The notes under the pieces were generated by a model. The model was not told the origin of the DNA, did not search any database, and saw only the letters and a program-made list of their open reading frames with translations. A stretch of DNA of 45,156 nt from Eubacteriales bacterium (GTDB lineage Bacteria > Bacillota > Clostridia > Lachnospirales > Lachnospiraceae): assembly GCA_030525875.1 (NCBI GenBank), contig JAUNDV010000019.1, positions 1-45,156 on the forward strand. The letters are read 5' to 3'. Positions 33,815 to 40,277 of the stretch are shown here, piece by piece. The translations under genes were made by a program, and so were the position numbers. How positions within the stretch are numbered: position 1 is the stretch's first letter; every line of letters starts with the position of its first letter.

Positions 33815-34294
33815 ATGTGTACAATAATTCAATTTCCAAAAAGAGCAGAAAGCAACGGATACAAAAACCTTGTAGCATTTTTTGAAATTTGTGACAGCGT
33901 AAAAAGCTGTAATTTTTATCTTGAATCTGCTGAATACCTCTACGAATCCGGCAAGATTACGGAAAACGAACTTTATACGCTCCGCAGAATAGGCAGACAA
34001 AAGCGTTTATCCCTTGCAAATCCAGAGTCAAAACCAATCAAGGCAGATAAGCCAGGAACTTATACATATACCCCAGAAATGGGACAGAAAAAGCCGGTAG
34101 GATGTCAAATAGAAGCAGGGCTTTGTTATTACGGCAAGCATTATTGGGTTAAAACATCTCTTGAATTAAAAGGCAGAGGAATAACAAAAAATGAGCCTGC
34201 AAGAGATGGGCGAAACAATTATACTGTAACAGTTAAAGCGTTCGAAAAGCTAGAAGCACAATACGCTATCAGTATTGAGGGCCGTTTAGATTAA
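33815..34294 (+). CDS. 159-aa protein of unknown function
   Basis: I do not recognise this protein. It starts MCTIIQFPKRAE. A helical first half (NLVAFFEICDSVKSCNFYLE, LYTLRRIGRQKRLSLA) is followed by a proline-rich linker and a beta-rich end with QIEAGLCYYGKHYWVKTSLE and TVTVKAFEKLEAQYAIS. An AGGAGGCC site precedes the ATG. Part of this gene, the region encoding QIEAGLCYYGKHYWVKTSLE, is duplicated at 36378-36456. The gene therefore took part in a local rearrangement. Confidence 0.7.
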   Translation: MCTIIQFPKRAESNGYKNLVAFFEICDSVKSCNFYLESAEYLYESGKITENELYTLRRIGRQKRLSLANPESKPIKADKPGTYTYTPEMGQKKPVGCQIEAGLCYYGKHYWVKTSLELKGRGITKNEPARDGRNNYTVTVKAFEKLEAQYAISIEGRLD

Positions 34295-34722: not shown

Positions 34723-34748
34723 AAAAAAGCCGGGTTTCCGGCTTTTTT
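34723..34748. terminator. Strong bidirectional terminator
   Basis: AAAAAAGCCGG (34723-34733) pairs with CCGGCTTTTTT (34738-34748) around a GTTT loop, with T tracts in both directions. It ends the plus-strand gene set and the first RHH-RelB-RelE cassette, which converge here. Confidence 0.92.
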
Positions 34749-34755
34749 TATTGTT

Positions 34756-35010
34756 CTAATATCTTTTATATATATCTCCTCTATTGTCTATATTTTCAAT
34801 ATTTATTATTTTTACAACGTCATCAATACTATACAAAATCCTAACATCGCCCACACGCAGCCTATACAAATTATAGCCTTGCATTTTCTTTATGTCTGAA
34901 CCTTCCGGCAACTTATAAATGGCCTTATATAATCTCAAGCGCTGTGTTTTGTCTTGCTTATCAAGAAATTTCTGGGCTGCTTTTTCAAATTTGACCTTGT
35001 AAGTCTGCAT
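34756..35010 (-). CDS. RelE/ParE-type toxin, cassette 1
   Basis: This 84-aa protein has the RelE fold pattern: YKVKFEKAAQKFLDKQDKTQ, KAIYKLPEGSDIKKMQGYN, LYRLRVGDVRILYSIDDV, and the C-terminal NRGDIYKRY. The conserved R-x-R-VGD-x-R and final Tyr are typical of RelE mRNA interferases. The ATG lies inside the antitoxin gene (26-bp overlap), preceded by AAGAGGGG. It closes a three-gene cassette. Confidence 0.93.
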   Translation of the reverse strand: MQTYKVKFEKAAQKFLDKQDKTQRLRLYKAIYKLPEGSDIKKMQGYNLYRLRVGDVRILYSIDDVVKIINIENIDNRGDIYKRY

Positions 35011-35224
35011 AAGTCAACCCCTCTTTTTTCAATAGTTCTTCAAATGATATTGTGTCGCCGTCATTTTCTTTTTTGGCTTCTTCAATCATTTTTAGATCCC
35101 ATTCATCCGGCTTTATTTCTTCAATTTCTGGAATTGCTGCACCCTCAAGAAAAGGGATAATATAAAAAAATTTGTTTTCCGGTATCCTGTTAATAAGTTC
35201 AATAGCTCTTTCTTTATTGCTCAT
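34985..35224 (-). CDS. RelB-like antitoxin, cassette 1
   Basis: This 79-aa protein has an N-terminal helical part, KERAIELINRIPENKFFYII, and an acidic C-terminal half (EEIKPDEWDLKMIEEAKKEN). It ends with GDTISFEELLKKEGLTYADL, the GxTxSxEELLKxxGL pattern of toxin-binding antitoxin tails. It overlaps the RHH gene by 4 bp (ATGA) and the toxin gene by 26 bp. It probably wraps around the RelE toxin. It lacks its own clear DNA-binding domain, so DNA binding may be done by the RHH protein. Confidence 0.85.
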   Translation of the reverse strand: MSNKERAIELINRIPENKFFYIIPFLEGAAIPEIEEIKPDEWDLKMIEEAKKENDGDTISFEELLKKEGLTYADLQGQI

Positions 35225-35418
35225 TTTTTCAATACCTCTCTTTCTATCTTTTCATTGACTGCCTGAATAATAAAAGCGTTTAGACTCATGCCACAAGTTT
35301 TAGCATAATTCATATATTTTTCTTTGTCTTCTTTGCTTACTCTTAATTTATACTCTCCTATATTTTTTAAATACTTTTTTGTAGCGGCAGCCTGAGCTTC
35401 TGTGTATTTATTTCCCAT
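35221..35418 (-). CDS. RHH regulator, cassette 1
   Basis: This 65-aa protein has a basic N-terminus (MGNKYTEAQAAATKKYLKNI), a strand (EYKLRVSKEDK) and two helices with GMSLNAFIIQAVNEKIERE, the ribbon-helix-helix pattern. An AGGAGGTATGGACAA site precedes the ATG at 35418. It is almost identical to the cassette 2 copy (two internal differences and the C-terminal end). It leads a three-gene cassette and probably represses it. Confidence 0.85.
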   Translation of the reverse strand: MGNKYTEAQAAATKKYLKNIGEYKLRVSKEDKEKYMNYAKTCGMSLNAFIIQAVNEKIEREVLKK

Positions 35419-35518
35419 TTGTCCATACCTCCTAAAATATAATAACATATTTTTTATATATGGGCATATATACATGTTTAACAAATATACGGGTGGGTAT
35501 ATATCACAATAAGAGTAT

Positions 35519-35549
35519 AACAAAAAGCCGTGAAACCCGGCTTTTTGTT
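35519..35549. terminator. Terminator of cassette 2
   Basis: AACAAAAAGCCG (35519-35530) pairs perfectly over 12 bp with CGGCTTTTTGTT (35538-35549). The sequence is similar to the terminator of cassette 1, in keeping with a duplication of the whole unit. Confidence 0.9.
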
Positions 35550-35555
35550 ATTATT

Positions 35556-35816
35556 CTAATATCTATTATATATTTCTCCACGGTTTCCGGCATCAATTAC
35601 ATAAACAATCAATTTTCCATTGTCTACACTGTAAATGATTCTATAGTCTCCAACACGGAGACGTAAAAGCCCCTTGTTTTTCTTCCCTTTTAATTGCCTT
35701 ATATCTTCACCTTCTGGTAACTGATAAATTGCTTTTAAAACTCTTTCTTTTTCTGGCTTCGGAAGTTTTATGATGAATTTTTCGGCGCGTTTTTTAATAT
35801 CTATTGTGTATTTCAT
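35556..35816 (-). CDS. RelE/ParE-type toxin, cassette 2
   Basis: This 86-aa protein resembles the cassette 1 toxin but has clearly diverged: KKRAEKFIIKLPKPEKERVL, KAIYQLPEGEDIRQLKG, GLLRLRVGDYRIIYSVDNGK and the end NRGEIYNRY. The LRVGDYRIIY core and terminal Tyr are intact, so it is probably functional. The ATG overlaps the antitoxin stop by 4 bp (ATGA). Confidence 0.93.
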   Translation of the reverse strand: MKYTIDIKKRAEKFIIKLPKPEKERVLKAIYQLPEGEDIRQLKGKKNKGLLRLRVGDYRIIYSVDNGKLIVYVIDAGNRGEIYNRY

Positions 35817-36034
35817 AACTCAATCCCTTCACGCTTTAATAATTCATCAAGTGTTATTGATTCATCTTTTTCAGGGTCTGGATCATTCAAATAATCCTGA
35901 TATAATTTTTCACAATATAAATCATCTTCAATTTCATCATCAAATGCAATGCCCTGCAAAAATAATAATATATTACCTATTTTGTAATCTGGCAACTTAT
36001 CAATTATTTGTTTTGCTTGTTCTCTTTCACTCAT
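35813..36034 (-). CDS. RelB-like antitoxin, cassette 2
   Basis: This 73-aa acidic protein has SEREQAKQIIDKLPDYKIGN, then DEIEDDLYCEKLYQDYLNDP, and the C-terminal ESITLDELLKREGIEL. Structure and position match the cassette 1 antitoxin, but the sequence is divergent, implying that the toxin-antitoxin pair co-evolved separately. It overlaps the RHH gene by 8 bp. Confidence 0.85.
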   Translation of the reverse strand: MSEREQAKQIIDKLPDYKIGNILLFLQGIAFDDEIEDDLYCEKLYQDYLNDPDPEKDESITLDELLKREGIEL

Positions 36035-36227
36035 TTTTTAACACCTCTCTTTCTATCTTTTCATTGACTGCCTGAATAATAAAAGTGTTTAGACTCATGC
36101 CACAAGTTTTAGCATAATTCATATATTTTTCTTTGTCTTCTTTCCTTACTCTTAATTTATACTCACCTATATTTTTTAAATACTTTTTTGTAGCGGCAGC
36201 CTGAGCCTCTGTGTATTTATTCCCCAT
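36027..36227 (-). CDS. RHH regulator, cassette 2
   Basis: This 66-aa protein differs from the cassette 1 copy by a Ser-to-Arg, an Ala-to-Thr and the last residues. The ATG at 36227 is preceded by the same ATGGACAA leader, although the ribosome binding site here is AAGAGGTATGG rather than GGAGG. Nearly identical regulators would cross-regulate both cassettes. Confidence 0.85.
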   Translation of the reverse strand: MGNKYTEAQAAATKKYLKNIGEYKLRVRKEDKEKYMNYAKTCGMSLNTFIIQAVNEKIEREVLKNE

Positions 36228-36377
36228 TTGTCCATACCTCTTAAAATATAATAACATATTTTCATATATGGGTATATATACATGTTTAACAAATATATGG
36301 GGGTTATATTTGTGTATTATGTTCCTTGTGATATATGGGACTATATATTACAATAAGGCCATAACAAAGAGAGAAAC

Positions 36378-36456
36378 TCAAATAGAAGTAGGGCTTTATT
36401 ATTACGGCAAGCATTATTGTGTTAAAACATCTCTTGAATTAAAAGGCAGAGCATAA
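36378..36456 (+). pseudogene. Fragment of the 159-aa gene (duplicated remnant)
   Basis: This stretch is over 90 percent identical to 34105-34183 of the plus-strand 159-aa gene and encodes TQIEVGLYYYGKHYCVKTSL. It then changes to GCAGAGCATAACAAAAA, identical to a sequence at 34711-34727 ahead of the terminator. It has no start or ribosome binding site. It is a recombination scar and is a direct repeat of the intact gene, flanking both toxin-antitoxin cassettes. Confidence 0.8.
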
Positions 36457-36468
36457 CAAAAAGTAAAA

Positions 36469-36996
36469 TCACAAAAACAAGCTTTTGATATAAAGCCAAA
36501 TATAGCAACAACATATAAATAATATTCCAATCAACGTTATTTTTATACTTATTACAAAGTATTTTTGCTTTCTCATTGCTATTCTTGAATTTTCAACTAT
36601 TTCTTCACAATAATCTTTTTCAATTTTAGGAACAGAATTATTATTGCTATTCCAATATTGTTTATATATTTCATTTAAATACTCATCTGCTTCTAAAGTT
36701 GAAATATATGCATAATGTAATAAATTTTTAAATATTTTATCATTCACAACCTTATCCATTTTTTTATTGATTGGCAAAAAAGAAATTACAGAACATACAA
36801 TAGCAATAAAAAATAAAGATATTGTTAAAATTAATAATTTAACTGACTCGCATAAACTTATCCCACTTATCAATGCTGTTATTATTGCAATATTCAACGC
36901 AATTAAAGCTGCGTTTTTAGCTTCAATAAAATGCAACCACATATTAGTATTTTCTAATATTTTTTGTAACAATTCTATATGCTTTTCATTTTCCAT
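36469..36996 (-). CDS. pycTM: Pycsar-type membrane effector (PycTM-like)
   Basis: This 175-aa protein has the PycTM/DUF5706-like layout. An N-terminal helix with NMWLHFIEAKNAALIALNIA leads into a first membrane segment (about 29-48). A second segment follows at 52-75 (LLILTISLFFIAIVCSVISF). A long cytosolic helical region (76-145) with EADEYLNEIYKQYWNSN precedes a third segment at 150-170. In Pycsar, a cyclic pyrimidine nucleotide activates such proteins to breach the membrane and halt infection. The gene overlaps the cyclase gene by 11 bp and is the last in the operon. Family assignment rests on architecture and on the cyclase neighbour. Confidence 0.8.
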   Translation of the reverse strand: MENEKHIELLQKILENTNMWLHFIEAKNAALIALNIAIITALISGISLCESVKLLILTISLFFIAIVCSVISFLPINKKMDKVVNDKIFKNLLHYAYISTLEADEYLNEIYKQYWNSNNNSVPKIEKDYCEEIVENSRIAMRKQKYFVISIKITLIGILFICCCYIWLYIKSLFL

Positions 36997-38503
36997 TTAG
37001 TTCTACTCTTTCAAATACACTTATTATAGTTTCTTTAAAATCAGGGACATGATTACTGTATTTTATATCTATCTCATCAATATCTTCCTTTTTTATCCAC
37101 GCCAGCTTGTCATGTTTTTCTGTAGGTTTAAAAGTATCAACATTAAAGTCTCCTATGATTTCAGCCATTGTAATAACACCCTTATCACTTTTGCATGAGG
37201 CTACATCTCCCATTCTATTAACATTATATAAAGCAATTGGCACTGGTTCTTTTTGTTCTCTATTTTCATCTATAACAGGTTCTATCTCTATATTAAAATC
37301 ATTTTTATATTCTTCTTTTATTTTTTCGACAAGACTCTTATTCATCACAGCCTTAGCACAACCAAATTCCCATTGTTCCTTAAATTTCTCCCTAGAATCT
37401 GTTCTTTTTGCAACTAATATTTTTATTCCATCTTTTCCTCGTTTAAAACAAACCGCAACACAATGTAATTCTAACTTTTCTACTCCAATATATCTCTCTT
37501 GATCCTTAACAGCTTCTTGAATGCACTTATTAAGATTGTTTAATTTTTCTCCAAGACCTCTATCTTGAGCTATTTTATTAAGTGCATAATAACAATCTGT
37601 AAACATTTTGATGTCTCTAACAACTCTATTTTTTCCCTGTTCAGCTCTATTTTCATAATATTCCTTAATTAATTCGCTTTCTTCTTCTGCATCAAAGCAA
37701 AAACTCTCTTCCAACTCTATCTTTTTTTGATAAGTCTTTAAATAGGTATTAGGATTGTGATACCATATTATTGGGTATAGTTTATCTTTCCATACCCCCT
37801 TCAATCTTTTATAAGTGATTATCTTTAAATACGATAATGATTCTGTTCTTTGGGATATAAGGTATGCTAACTCAAAACTCAATACAAGACGGCCATCCTC
37901 TGTTTGCTTTGAAATTCTAAACCCAGCATCTATATCATTCCCTAAAAATTCAAAAATTTCATTTCCTTCTTGTGACTCATATTTTTCAAAAATATTTTCA
38001 ATTTCATTTTGTAATATCTCTTTATTTTCGATATTTCCAACATCTCTTACATCTGCAATCCATGCTGTTGCTTTTAAAGATAGATTATTTTGCAATTTCA
38101 TTAATTCCTTATCATATTGAATAAAAAAATCGCCTTTTTTTAACTTGAATATAGTTTCAATTAAAATTGAATATATTTTGTCTATATACTCATATAAAGA
38201 ATTATTATCGGTTATTTTCTTAATAAAAATAGCCTCATCACCTAAAACTCTCCACATTTCTGAATCCGGGATTTTAATTTGTACTTCGTTTCTTATCTCT
38301 CTAAATAAAACATTTAACGCTTGAGCCCATCCAAAATAATTTATCGTTTTATACGATGTAGAATTAACAATATCAAAAGAAAAGAACAGTACAACATCAT
38401 TTTTTATTGCAACCTGTTCTTTACGATTATTATCATTTTTAGTTAATTTATCAATTCCACTCTGAATATTTATTAATTTCGCATTTATATTATTATCTAC
38501 CAT
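36986..38503 (-). CDS. pycC: Pycsar-type class III nucleotide cyclase fused to Nudix-like domain
   Basis: This 505-aa protein has a class III cyclase domain at about 35-225. The first metal Asp lies in VVLFFSFDIVNSTSYK (Asp44), the second in MWRVLGDEAIF (Asp89). A FLGNDIDAGFRISKQ segment provides the Asp/Arg transition-state pair (Asp192/Arg196). A helical linker follows. Residues about 344-500 form a Nudix-like fold (LHCVAVCFKRGKDGIKILVA, then EQWEFGCAKAVM). The Nudix box is degenerate: only the EE of EKIKEEYKND remains of REUXEEXGU, so it may sense rather than hydrolyse. Cyclase plus membrane effector resembles Pycsar defence. It overlaps the upstream peptidase gene by 7 bp. The nucleotide product cannot be told from sequence. 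Confidence 0.85.
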   Translation of the reverse strand: MVDNNINAKLINIQSGIDKLTKNDNNRKEQVAIKNDVVLFFSFDIVNSTSYKTINYFGWAQALNVLFREIRNEVQIKIPDSEMWRVLGDEAIFIKKITDNNSLYEYIDKIYSILIETIFKLKKGDFFIQYDKELMKLQNNLSLKATAWIADVRDVGNIENKEILQNEIENIFEKYESQEGNEIFEFLGNDIDAGFRISKQTEDGRLVLSFELAYLISQRTESLSYLKIITYKRLKGVWKDKLYPIIWYHNPNTYLKTYQKKIELEESFCFDAEEESELIKEYYENRAEQGKNRVVRDIKMFTDCYYALNKIAQDRGLGEKLNNLNKCIQEAVKDQERYIGVEKLELHCVAVCFKRGKDGIKILVAKRTDSREKFKEQWEFGCAKAVMNKSLVEKIKEEYKNDFNIEIEPVIDENREQKEPVPIALYNVNRMGDVASCKSDKGVITMAEIIGDFNVDTFKPTEKHDKLAWIKKEDIDEIDIKYSNHVPDFKETIISVFERVELNGK

Positions 38504-39027
38504 CTTAAATACCCCAATCGCCTACCTCTATTTGAAGCTGCATCAATTGATACATGGAAGTAATTTGCAATTTTTGTAATGTTCACCATATTATCTTCAA
38601 TATTTTCAAACATTATCTTTTCATATTCTTTTTTAGGCATTAAAAGAGCAGCAGCAAACTCATTAGATTGATATTCTGATTCTGAATTACCATTTCTGTA
38701 ATACGTTACATTTATTTGATTGCTCCATTTTACATCATTTGTCATAAATCCCATATGTAGAAAAAGATGTCCTATTTCGTGAGCAATTGTAAAATTACGT
38801 CGCTCTTTTGATTGCTTTGGTGACACCTCAATCACAAAAGAATTTGTACCTTTCTTCATTATTCTTCCATCTGAAAAAGTATCTAATTCCGGGTTTTCTT
38901 TTACTATTCCGTTCATTCTATTAACAACATCATCAATATCATTAATAGGAATTGTAATATCATATAACTTAATAACTTCATCAGCCATTTCATTTATGAG
39001 GTTTCTCATCTCTAGACTTAAAGCCAT
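38497..39027 (-). CDS. ImmA/IrrE-family zinc metallopeptidase
   Basis: This 176-aa protein has the HExxH motif in NFTIAHEIGHLFLHMG (His83, Glu84, His87). The downstream NEFAAALLMPKKEYEKIM supplies the third ligand Glu, the hallmark of ImmA/IrrE peptidases. Members typically cleave an HTH repressor, but no XRE gene lies beside it. The start at 39027 has an AAGGAGGTG site 7 nt upstream; frames before it lack one. It is the first gene of the operon with the cyclase and the membrane effector. It may act as a sensor, a regulator or a processing enzyme of the system. Confidence 0.92.
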   Translation of the reverse strand: MALSLEMRNLINEMADEVIKLYDITIPINDIDDVVNRMNGIVKENPELDTFSDGRIMKKGTNSFVIEVSPKQSKERRNFTIAHEIGHLFLHMGFMTNDVKWSNQINVTYYRNGNSESEYQSNEFAAALLMPKKEYEKIMFENIEDNMVNITKIANYFHVSIDAASNRGRRLGYLRW

Positions 39028-39078
39028 ACTAACACACCTCCTTTTCAACTTCCTATTATAAATTGAGGATTATTATGA

Positions 39079-39087: not shown

Positions 39088-39180
39088 TGTTCTGCAATAA
39101 TAATCACTTTAAACCTATGATTTTTATTTATTAAAAATACACAAAAATATAGCAAAAATATAGTTTATATTAACTTATTA

Positions 39181-39219
39181 AAAAAGCTTAAGCAACTGCT
39201 GCCACAATTACTTAAGCTC
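39181..39219 (-). terminator. Terminator insulating the defence operon
   Basis: On the minus strand AGCTTAAG (39219-39212) pairs with CTTAAGCT (39193-39186) and is followed by TTTTTTAA. It stops transcription from the 108-aa gene and the early region before the defence operon promoter. Confidence 0.78.
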
Positions 39220-39794: not shown

Positions 39795-40277
39795 TCATCG
39801 CGCGCGCAAGGCTTTTTCCTTAAGTTCTTCAACACTTTTGTGCTCGTCAAACTGCTCCCCCAGACGATCCAGGGCTATGTCAAACCTATATCTACATGTG
39901 GACTCTTTTTCCGAAAAAATGTAACTTATTTTAGCCCAACTGTACTCACGCAATAGCTTATACATAACAAGCTTTTTGTACTTACCGTTTATTTGGTCTA
40001 AACAACGCCTTATGAAGGCATGATCAGCCTCCAAGGCTCTTATATTCTGCTCTATCTCTTTAAGCATTTCAGATGCATTGGATTCTGCTGCCTTAATGCC
40101 CAAAGTCTCAGATGGATTCCCAACAGAGGTGCCGTGTGGCATTCCATCAATGTTTATAGCCCTGGCACTGTTATAATAAGTATTACACAACTCTCTATGC
40201 TGCTTCAAAAAGAGTTCCAACATCTCCGGAATATTTTTATAGTATATAATTATATTTTTTACATCACTGCGCTCCAC
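39795..40277 (-). CDS. ArpU/RinA-type phage late transcription regulator (sigma-70 region 4-like)
   Basis: This 160-aa protein has a helical N-terminal region (ASEMLKEIEQNIRALEADHA). Its C-terminal helix-turn-helix resembles sigma region 4: KKLVMYKLLREYSWAKISYI, then EKESTCRYRFDIALDRLG. Proteins of this kind activate the late genes from a promoter ahead of the terminase. Their typical position is at the end of the early region, as here, although in this phage an accessory island separates it from the terminase genes. Confidence 0.85.
   Translation of the reverse strand: MERSDVKNIIIYYKNIPEMLELFLKQHRELCNTYYNSARAINIDGMPHGTSVGNPSETLGIKAAESNASEMLKEIEQNIRALEADHAFIRRCLDQINGKYKKLVMYKLLREYSWAKISYIFSEKESTCRYRFDIALDRLGEQFDEHKSVEELKEKALRAR

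What the first reader, a model, noticed from the sequence alone, without database searches (positions are those of the whole stretch)
36469..39027. Three-gene Pycsar-like operon with an added ImmA/IrrE peptidase
Three genes overlap by 7 and 11 bp: metallopeptidase with HEIGH, class III nucleotide cyclase with both metal Asp residues, and a three-helix PycTM-like membrane protein. Known Pycsar systems consist of a pyrimidine cyclase and an effector. A translationally coupled peptidase is not part of the standard description. The operon has its own extended -10 promoter and a terminator upstream, so it is expressed independently of the phage late genes. It probably protects the lysogen from other phages. 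The peptidase may sense infection, release inhibition, or process the effector.
Basis: partly seen in the sequence, partly recalled or inferred. Interest (0 to 1): 0.9.

Follow-up and report, generated by a model that had tools for sequence, protein, structure and literature searches.

The report
Peptidase-coupled cyclase alarm in a prophage
A prophage carries three overlapping genes (a zinc peptidase, an enzyme that probably makes a cyclic nucleotide, and a membrane protein of a known phage-defence type); relatives suggest that the peptidase and the enzyme form a widespread pair, so this looks like a variant of cyclic-nucleotide phage defence that I found no description of.

Summary

The peptidase is no addition: it lies directly upstream of 55 of 79 non-redundant relatives in six named phyla (32 of 34 on the window's side of the tree; 1 of 554 other ORFs in the same loci). 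PycTM is the addition: 17 of 26 relatives with the Nudix-like tail have it, 0 of 54 without. 'Pyrimidine cyclase' is not supported: 0 of 78 match PycC models (control 6 of 6), and the aromatic that PycCs use for base selection is Ser in 78 of 78. cAMP is as likely.

Most likely it is an abortive-infection alarm with a peptidase-cyclase core and a PycTM pore as output. The peptidase's role, the product and the defence are inferred.

The parts
38497..39027 (-). M78 (ImmA/IrrE-type) zinc metallopeptidase, 176 aa, HEIGH at residues 83-87, E118
   Evidence: Pfam PF06114 E 6.8e-19; PADLOC capP E 7.2e-29; HExxH in 54 of 55 partner peptidases, E118 column in 55 of 55
36986..38503 (-). class III-fold nucleotide cyclase with Nudix-like C-terminus, 505 aa
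   Evidence: AlphaFold2 pLDDT 84.9; VIA-align and Foldseek against PDB; phrog_6174 (unknown function) E 1.4e-124
37748..38410 (-). cyclase domain (residues 32-252): metal Asp D44 and D89; R85 and E185 at the base-contact positions; D192 and R196
37001..37480 (-). Nudix-fold domain (residues 342-501) without the catalytic Nudix box
36469..36996 (-). PycTM-type membrane effector, 175 aa, three hydrophobic segments
   Evidence: Pfam PF18967 34.9 bits against cut-off 27.2; PADLOC PycTM E 1.1e-21 and 2TM Effector E 1.5e-29; hydropathy
39037..39042 (-). AGGAGG Shine-Dalgarno of the peptidase gene
   Evidence: sequence
39146..39173 (-). promoter-like site TTAATA-16-TATATT with extended -10 TG (pattern only)
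39184..39219 (-). intrinsic-terminator-like stem upstream of the operon
36378..36462 (+). 85-bp copy (91%) of 34105-34189, ending 7 bp from the PycTM stop; possible edge of an imported cassette

Best explanation
A prophage-borne abortive-infection cassette. Shown: a translationally coupled M78 peptidase, a class III-fold cyclase with a Nudix-like tail that lacks the catalytic box, and a PycTM membrane protein, found together in relatives. Inferred mechanism: peptidase and cyclase form the signal-generating core. In uninfected cells the cyclase is held off. Infection by another phage creates a cue (ssDNA from phage replication is the best candidate, since the M78 proteases PprI and CapP are ssDNA-activated), and the peptidase then cuts or releases its partner. 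The cyclase makes a cyclic mononucleotide (product open; cAMP at least as likely as cCMP or cUMP), which makes PycTM breach the membrane, so the infected lysogen dies or stops growing. The Nudix-like tail binds a nucleotide or phage-derived ligand and tunes the cyclase for use with PycTM.
For: Class III fold. D44, D89 and R196 invariant in 78 of 78. Peptidase directly upstream in 55 of 79 non-redundant relatives and 32 of 34 on the window's side of the tree, against 1 of 554 other ORFs. It is kept in 17 of 17 loci with PycTM, so it is not swapped out when an effector is present, which argues for a role upstream of the effector. PycTM beside 17 of 26 tailed cyclases and 0 of 54 untailed ones, in three arrangements (11 downstream, 5 upstream, 1 convergent). 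Four other PycTM loci of the same phylum have no M78 (the cyclase is confirmed as PycC in three of them). Mobile and defence contexts: C. difficile phages phiC2 and phiCD27, Leptospira phage LE1, plasmids, type I RM specificity genes and BrxC/D beside PycTM-less pairs. ssDNA activation of PprI, and of CapH cleavage by CapP, is stated in PMC10904395 (passages).
Against: No biochemical or phage data. PycTM-less peptidase-cyclase pairs are common (38 of 55) and show no recurrent third Pfam family, so the output there is unknown and the peptidase could be the effector. PprI needs its C-terminal GAF-like domain for activation by ssDNA; Pfam shows nothing but the M78 domain in this 176-aa peptidase. 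Nothing identifies the peptidase's substrate. Nine of 26 tailed cyclases have no PycTM, and 24 of 79 relatives have no peptidase. The tail-PycTM association rests on few independent changes: 2 independent pairs on starred branches, not significant.
Confidence: 0.5

Rival explanations
1. The peptidase is itself an effector: the cyclase's product activates it and it cleaves a host or phage protein; PycTM is a second, optional effector.
For: 38 of the 55 non-redundant pairs have no PycTM, and no third Pfam family recurs among 120 of 146 listed neighbour ORFs; HExxH is intact in 54 of 55.
Against: The peptidase is kept in 17 of 17 loci that already have PycTM; Pfam shows no cyclic-nucleotide-binding domain in it; a host CRP-type receptor could serve instead (one cNMP_binding protein in the host genome).
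Confidence: 0.2
2. A prophage-control module: the peptidase is an ImmA-like anti-repressor that cleaves a phage or mobile-element repressor, and the cyclase couples this to cell state; defence is a by-product.
For: M78 proteins are typical of lysogeny modules (recalled); the LE1 peptidase is annotated 'immunity region protein in prophage' with a 'Repressor protein CI' nearby; HTH_3 is the commonest neighbour family (6 of 120 ORFs).
Against: No XRE-type repressor among 17 flanking ORFs of the window scanned with Pfam; some pairs lie beside restriction-type genes; it does not explain PycTM.
Confidence: 0.13
3. A genuine Pycsar system (cCMP or cUMP) whose cyclase has diverged beyond the known clades, with the peptidase as an accessory.
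For: Same effector family (PF18967) and same class III fold; R85 lies at the position (-4 from the second metal Asp) of R142 in EaPycC (spacing from the residue numbers in PMC11224242, passages).
Against: PADLOC PycC models: 0 of 78 relatives against 6 of 6 controls; Ser instead of the base-selecting aromatic in 78 of 78; K/R85 with D/E185 is the adenylyl-cyclase pattern (motif recalled).
Confidence: 0.12
4. Inhibitory logic as in Panoptes: the cyclase acts all the time and its product keeps PycTM off; phage sponges or nucleases that remove the nucleotide, or the peptidase destroying the cyclase, release the toxin.
For: The precedent exists for a cyclase plus 2TM-beta effector (PMC12657230, passages incl. 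part of the abstract); PADLOC 2TM effector models match the PycTM.
Against: Known PycTM effectors are activated by the nucleotide (PMC11224242 passages); nothing in the sequence favours inhibition.
Confidence: 0.05

Closest known systems
Pycsar (PycC + PycTM/PycTIR)
   Same: class III cyclase fold beside a PycTM-family membrane protein
   Different: cyclase outside all PADLOC PycC models, no pyrimidine-selecting aromatic, Nudix-like tail, coupled M78 peptidase
CapH/CapP regulated CBASS
   Same: an M78 peptidase that matches the PADLOC capP model (E 7.2e-29), tied to a nucleotide-signalling operon
   Different: class III cyclase instead of a CD-NTase, no XRE-type repressor found nearby, peptidase gene overlaps the cyclase gene
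PprI/IrrE-DdrO and ImmA-ImmR
   Same: M78 protease family
   Different: no repressor partner found; the coupled partner is a cyclase
phage LE1 ORF1/ORF2 and phiC2 p41/p42
   Same: same peptidase-cyclase pair; the phiC2 record already notes the likeness to LE1 ORFs 1 and 2
   Different: no function named in those records; the LE1 pair lacks the Nudix-like tail and PycTM; in phiC2 the PycTM gene is convergent
Panoptes (mCpol + 2TM-beta)
   Same: two-part cyclase and membrane-effector logic
   Different: mCpol is a Cas10-like cyclase that makes c-di-AMP (PMC12657230); no peptidase named in the passages seen

Membership tests
Pycsar | class III nucleotide cyclase fold | tested here: met
Pycsar | two metal-binding Asp | tested here: met
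   D44 and D89 in 78 of 78 aligned relatives
Pycsar | cyclase recognised as PycC by sequence model | tested here: not met
   PADLOC PycC models: 0 of 78 at E up to 1; positive control 6 of 6
Pycsar | pyrimidine-selecting residues (aromatic two before the first metal Asp: F60 in AnPycC, F100 in EaPycC; Y50 in BcPycC) | tested here: not met
   Ser at that column in 78 of 78; PycC residues from PMC11224242 passages (the -2 spacing follows from the numbers given for AnPycC and EaPycC)
Pycsar | adjacent PycTM or PycTIR effector | tested here: met
   PF18967 above cut-off in the window; PycTM near 17 of 26 tailed relatives
Pycsar | makes cCMP or cUMP and protects from phage | not testable with these tools
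   needs LC-MS and plaque assays
M78 (ImmA/IrrE) peptidases | HExxH zinc motif in an IrrE N-terminal-like domain | tested here: met
   PF06114 E 6.8e-19; HExxH in 54 of 55 partners
CapH/CapP-CBASS | HTH repressor (CapH) beside the peptidase | tested here: not met
   no XRE-type family in 17 flanking ORFs scanned with Pfam; only weak hits to other DNA-binding types (Myb-like E 0.03 at 39795-40277; HicB/NikA-like below cut-off in the toxin-antitoxin sets)
CapH/CapP-CBASS | CD-NTase cyclase | tested here: not met
   the cyclase has the class III fold
Nudix hydrolases | Nudix fold | tested here: met
Nudix hydrolases | catalytic box GX5EX7REUXEEXGU (motif recalled) | tested here: not met
   G381 kept in 25 of 25, but the Glu positions read M387 and IKEEYK 395-400, with Y399 in 25 of 25
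Class III adenylyl cyclases | Lys and Asp that contact adenine, at KxxGD and DxxG | tested here: inconclusive
   K/R85 and D/E185 in 78 of 78; the window has R85 and E185; correspondence by motif spacing (recalled), product unknown

The most novel reading that the evidence does not exclude
Peptidase-cyclase is an old, so far undescribed two-gene signalling-immunity module in which protease and cyclase control each other (an infection-sensing protease that switches on a class III cyclase, or a cyclic-nucleotide-switched protease). It evolved apart from Pycsar, borrowed PycTM when its cyclase acquired a dead Nudix sensor, and here uses cAMP as an alarm in a host whose genome shows no other class III cyclase.
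Probability: 0.35. Interest if true: 0.82.

Novelty: new variant of a known kind. Interest (0 to 1): 0.66.

Why it matters
It points to a broad family of class III-fold cyclases (peptidase pair in six named phyla, phages and plasmids) that PADLOC models do not recognise in any of 78 relatives and Pfam's Guanylate_cyc in only one, at E 0.025, and NCBIfam not in the window's protein. It gives most of the family a protease partner and ties part of it to a known pore-type effector. If the peptidase gates the cyclase, it would be a direct proteolytic switch on cyclic-mononucleotide immunity and would help answer how Pycsar-like cyclases sense infection. Two long-known hypothetical pairs (LE1 ORF1/2, phiC2 p41/p42) would get a testable function.

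Tried and rejected
Single-sequence scans of viral contigs and genome contigs with the 505-aa protein found no relatives; the alignment-derived motif then found 45 and 146 (80 kept). PDB sequence search with the cyclase found only designed helical proteins, and with the family profile nothing convincing (1wc0 E 0.46, 4zve E 0.064). hhalign of the family against six PycC lined up both metal motifs but with probability 0.8 and E 0.067, so homology rests on the fold. No PycC crystal structure is among the 50 rows shown; that absence says nothing. The weak PADLOC PDC-S07 hit (E 3.3e-6) lies in the Nudix-like part. No prophage close enough to show an empty site (2 of 150 genomes match, one of them the own genome). 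A scan of viral contigs with a control PycC gave one locus (L144).

Papers (search listings unless stated): 'Pycsar'+'ImmA' 1, conference abstracts; the one 'imma' passage shown is the word 'immature'; PycC/PycTM terms 270 hold one, 25 listed; 'ImmA'+'nucleotide cyclase' 14, none relevant by title; CapP/CapH 24 held, 10 listed; 'Pycsar'+'C. difficile'+'prophage' 4; 'Pycsar'+'Nudix' 2, unrelated by title; M78/IrrE terms 3,074 held, 15 listed; phiC2+LE1 8; Pycsar+protease terms 6 held, 5 listed. Passages only: PMC11224242, PMC10904395, PMC12657230, PMC9887734. The DOIs that I recalled for the founding Pycsar paper and for the 2015 nucleotide-centric-systems survey are not held, so what they say is unknown here.

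Rows dropped before counts: L133 (no cyclase ORF found under table 11; titled Mycoplasmataceae, so code 4 may apply), L136 (weak hit), L079 (cyclase in two short ORFs; it does have the peptidase and PycTM), L001 and L135 (copies of the window). 80 representatives at 80% identity came from 132 loci. A3 holds 78 of the 80 (I left out L046 and L054). A4 holds 24 of the 25 tailed or long references printed (L102 left out) plus L010. Two representatives without a peptidase (L046, cut short upstream; L099) have cluster mates with one (L047, L107). The genome set is the best 80 of 146 by likeness to the window, so fractions are not prevalences. PycTM was sought with an HMM grown from two sequences and within 3 kb; other effector types would be missed. 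Neighbour scan: 120 of 146 listed ORFs given, Pfam families at E up to 1e-4 only; unclassified neighbours were not clustered. Peptidase-free PycTM controls: 4 loci looked at out of 6 other genomes hit; the two not looked at (G627, G700) are below the family cut-off, as is one looked at (G930); the cyclase of L152 was not tested against PycC models.
Full report
WHAT IS THERE. On the minus strand the order is peptidase (38497-39027), cyclase (36986-38503), membrane protein (36469-36996), with overlaps of 7 and 11 bp. The peptidase has a good Shine-Dalgarno (AGGAGG, 39037-39042); the two downstream starts sit inside the preceding gene, as in translational coupling. The operon lies among phage genes: an SSB, a Rep-type protein and small ORFs upstream, two ParE-type toxin-antitoxin sets downstream, and further on portal and tape-measure genes; host-type Rnf and [FeFe]-hydrogenase genes lie at the other end of the contig. 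A terminator-like stem and an extended -10 site precede the operon, but promoter-like sites are not above chance in this AT-rich region.

ACTIVE SITE. In 78 aligned relatives S42, D44, K52, W59, W84, G88, D89, E90, G188, D192, G194, F195 and R196 never vary. D44 and D89 are the metal ligands by fold and motif. By motif spacing (recalled from mammalian adenylyl cyclase), K/R85 sits at the adenine-contacting Lys, D/E185 at its Asp partner, D192 at the transition-state Asn and R196 at the Arg. The pair K85-D185 is found in 62 of 78, R85-E185 (with N189) in 9 of 78, and K85-E185 in 7 of 78. All nine R-E-N cases carry the Nudix-like tail and PycTM; the window is one of them. Known PycCs select the pyrimidine with an aromatic two residues before the first metal Asp (F60 before D62 in AnPycC, F100 before D102 in EaPycC; Y50 in BcPycC; PMC11224242, passages); here that residue is Ser in 78 of 78. 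The chemistry is thus likely intact, but 'pyrimidine' is not indicated. The host genome (97.75% complete) has no protein that Pfam Guanylate_cyc recognises and one cNMP-binding protein; note that this model does not recognise the present family either.

RELATIVES. C. difficile phages phiC2 and phiCD27 carry a 44%-identical cyclase over 98% of its length, the peptidase just upstream (25-bp overlap) and a convergent 172-aa PycTM (Pfam E 3e-12 for phiC2). Leptospira phage LE1 and plasmids of Leptospira (two types), Mycolicibacterium and Tistrella carry peptidase and cyclase without tail or PycTM; the Sphingomonas plasmid cyclase has no peptidase. The motif scan gave 45 viral loci and 146 genome loci, of which 80 were kept. 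Of 132 usable loci, 80 are distinct at 80% identity. Of 79 with at least 500 bp upstream, 55 have the peptidase directly upstream of the cyclase domain. By the called gene starts 52 pairs could be measured, and 51 of them lie between -40 and +25 bp. Named phyla with the pair: Bacillota, Pseudomonadota, Spirochaetota, Myxococcota, Thermodesulfobacteriota, Actinomycetota; an Aminicenantes MAG (L078) also has it. Control: 1 of 554 other ORFs in the same loci has an M78 gene directly upstream. Other PycTM loci from the same phylum (L151-L154) have no M78, 4 of 4 looked at; six proteins from L144, L151, L153 and L154 are PycC by PADLOC.

TWO LAYERS. Cyclases with the Nudix-like tail: 26, of which 24 have the peptidase and 17 a PycTM within 3 kb. 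Cyclases without: 54, of which 31 of 53 testable have the peptidase and none a PycTM. PycTM sits downstream (11), upstream (5) or convergent (1). One other genome in a draw from the class (2 of 391 positive, the own genome included) again shows peptidase, tailed cyclase and convergent PycTM, in two copies within a 9.9-kb repeat of 99.6% identity. On the tree, rooted at the midpoint only, the window's side of the deepest branch has the peptidase in 32 of 34 rows and the other side in 22 of 44, the gaps being two Pseudomonadota-dominated groups of 15 and 6 rows plus L099. The trees need 5 changes for the peptidase, 6 for the tail and 7 for PycTM. The tail-PycTM link has few independent contrasts (2 on supported branches), so it is a strong pattern with little phylogenetic replication. 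Around PycTM-less pairs no third Pfam family stands out: of 120 neighbour ORFs, HTH_3 in 6, response regulators in 4, type I specificity genes in 3, integrases in 3, further M78 in 3, BrxC/D in 2.

HOW IT PROBABLY WORKS. Because the peptidase is retained where PycTM is present and occurs where it is absent, it belongs to the core with the cyclase. The simplest reading is a proteolytic gate on the cyclase, with PycTM as output. Deinococcus PprI, and CapP cleaving CapH, are activated by ssDNA (PMC10904395, passages), a cue that phage replication provides; whether this 176-aa peptidase binds ssDNA is unknown, and PprI needs a GAF-like domain that Pfam does not show here. Shown: gene order, conservation, folds, catalytic residues. 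Inferred: product, gate, cue, pore, protection.

STATUS. In its parts it resembles Pycsar; in membership it fails two tested PycC features and is not filed as Pycsar. It is best called a Pycsar-like variant with its own cyclase family and a peptidase that is nearly constant on the window's side of the tree. The searches named under Tried and rejected found no paper that describes it; the library holds open-licence papers only, and the founding Pycsar paper was not found in it under the DOI tried.

Noticed in passing
window 34756-36257: Two tandem toxin-antitoxin-like gene sets: ParE_toxin above cut-off at 34756-35010 (E 7.9e-7) and 35556-35816 (E 1.1e-8), each with a small partner and a DUF6290/HicB-like gene; a 229-bp direct repeat at 97% (35225-35453, 36034-36262) shows the duplication.
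   Followed up: partly
window 34105-34189 and 36378-36462: An 85-bp piece of the ORF at 33815-34294 is repeated (91%) right at the 3' end of the PycTM gene, which may mark a recombination edge of the cassette.
   Followed up: partly
window 34724-34748 and 35522-35546: Inverted 25-bp arms (84%) that look like paired terminators bracket one of the toxin-antitoxin sets.
   Followed up: no
21 representatives among L006 and L092-L134, two groups (mostly Phenylobacterium, Sphingomonadales and Lysobacterales by title): A branch of the same cyclase family stands without peptidase or PycTM and may have a different job.
   Followed up: no
L154:2708-5446 and L144:3980-6088: Two different PycC-type cyclases side by side; in L154 they flank a PycTM. 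Doublet Pycsar operons.
   Followed up: no
L155 and L156: One genome has two copies, about 18 kb apart, of a 9.9-kb stretch with peptidase, tailed cyclase and PycTM; in L155 some ORFs are shorter or split compared with L156.
   Followed up: partly
L007:2620-3971: Mycolicibacterium plasmid with two annotated ImmA/IrrE genes in a row before the cyclase.
   Followed up: no
L099 and L107: Verrucomicrobial cyclases that cluster at 80% identity: L107 has the peptidase upstream, L099 has an opposite-strand ORF there that reads like a helix-turn-helix protein by eye.
   Followed up: no
L133: A relative in a contig titled Mycoplasmataceae has no cyclase ORF under table 11; genetic code 4 may apply.
   Followed up: no
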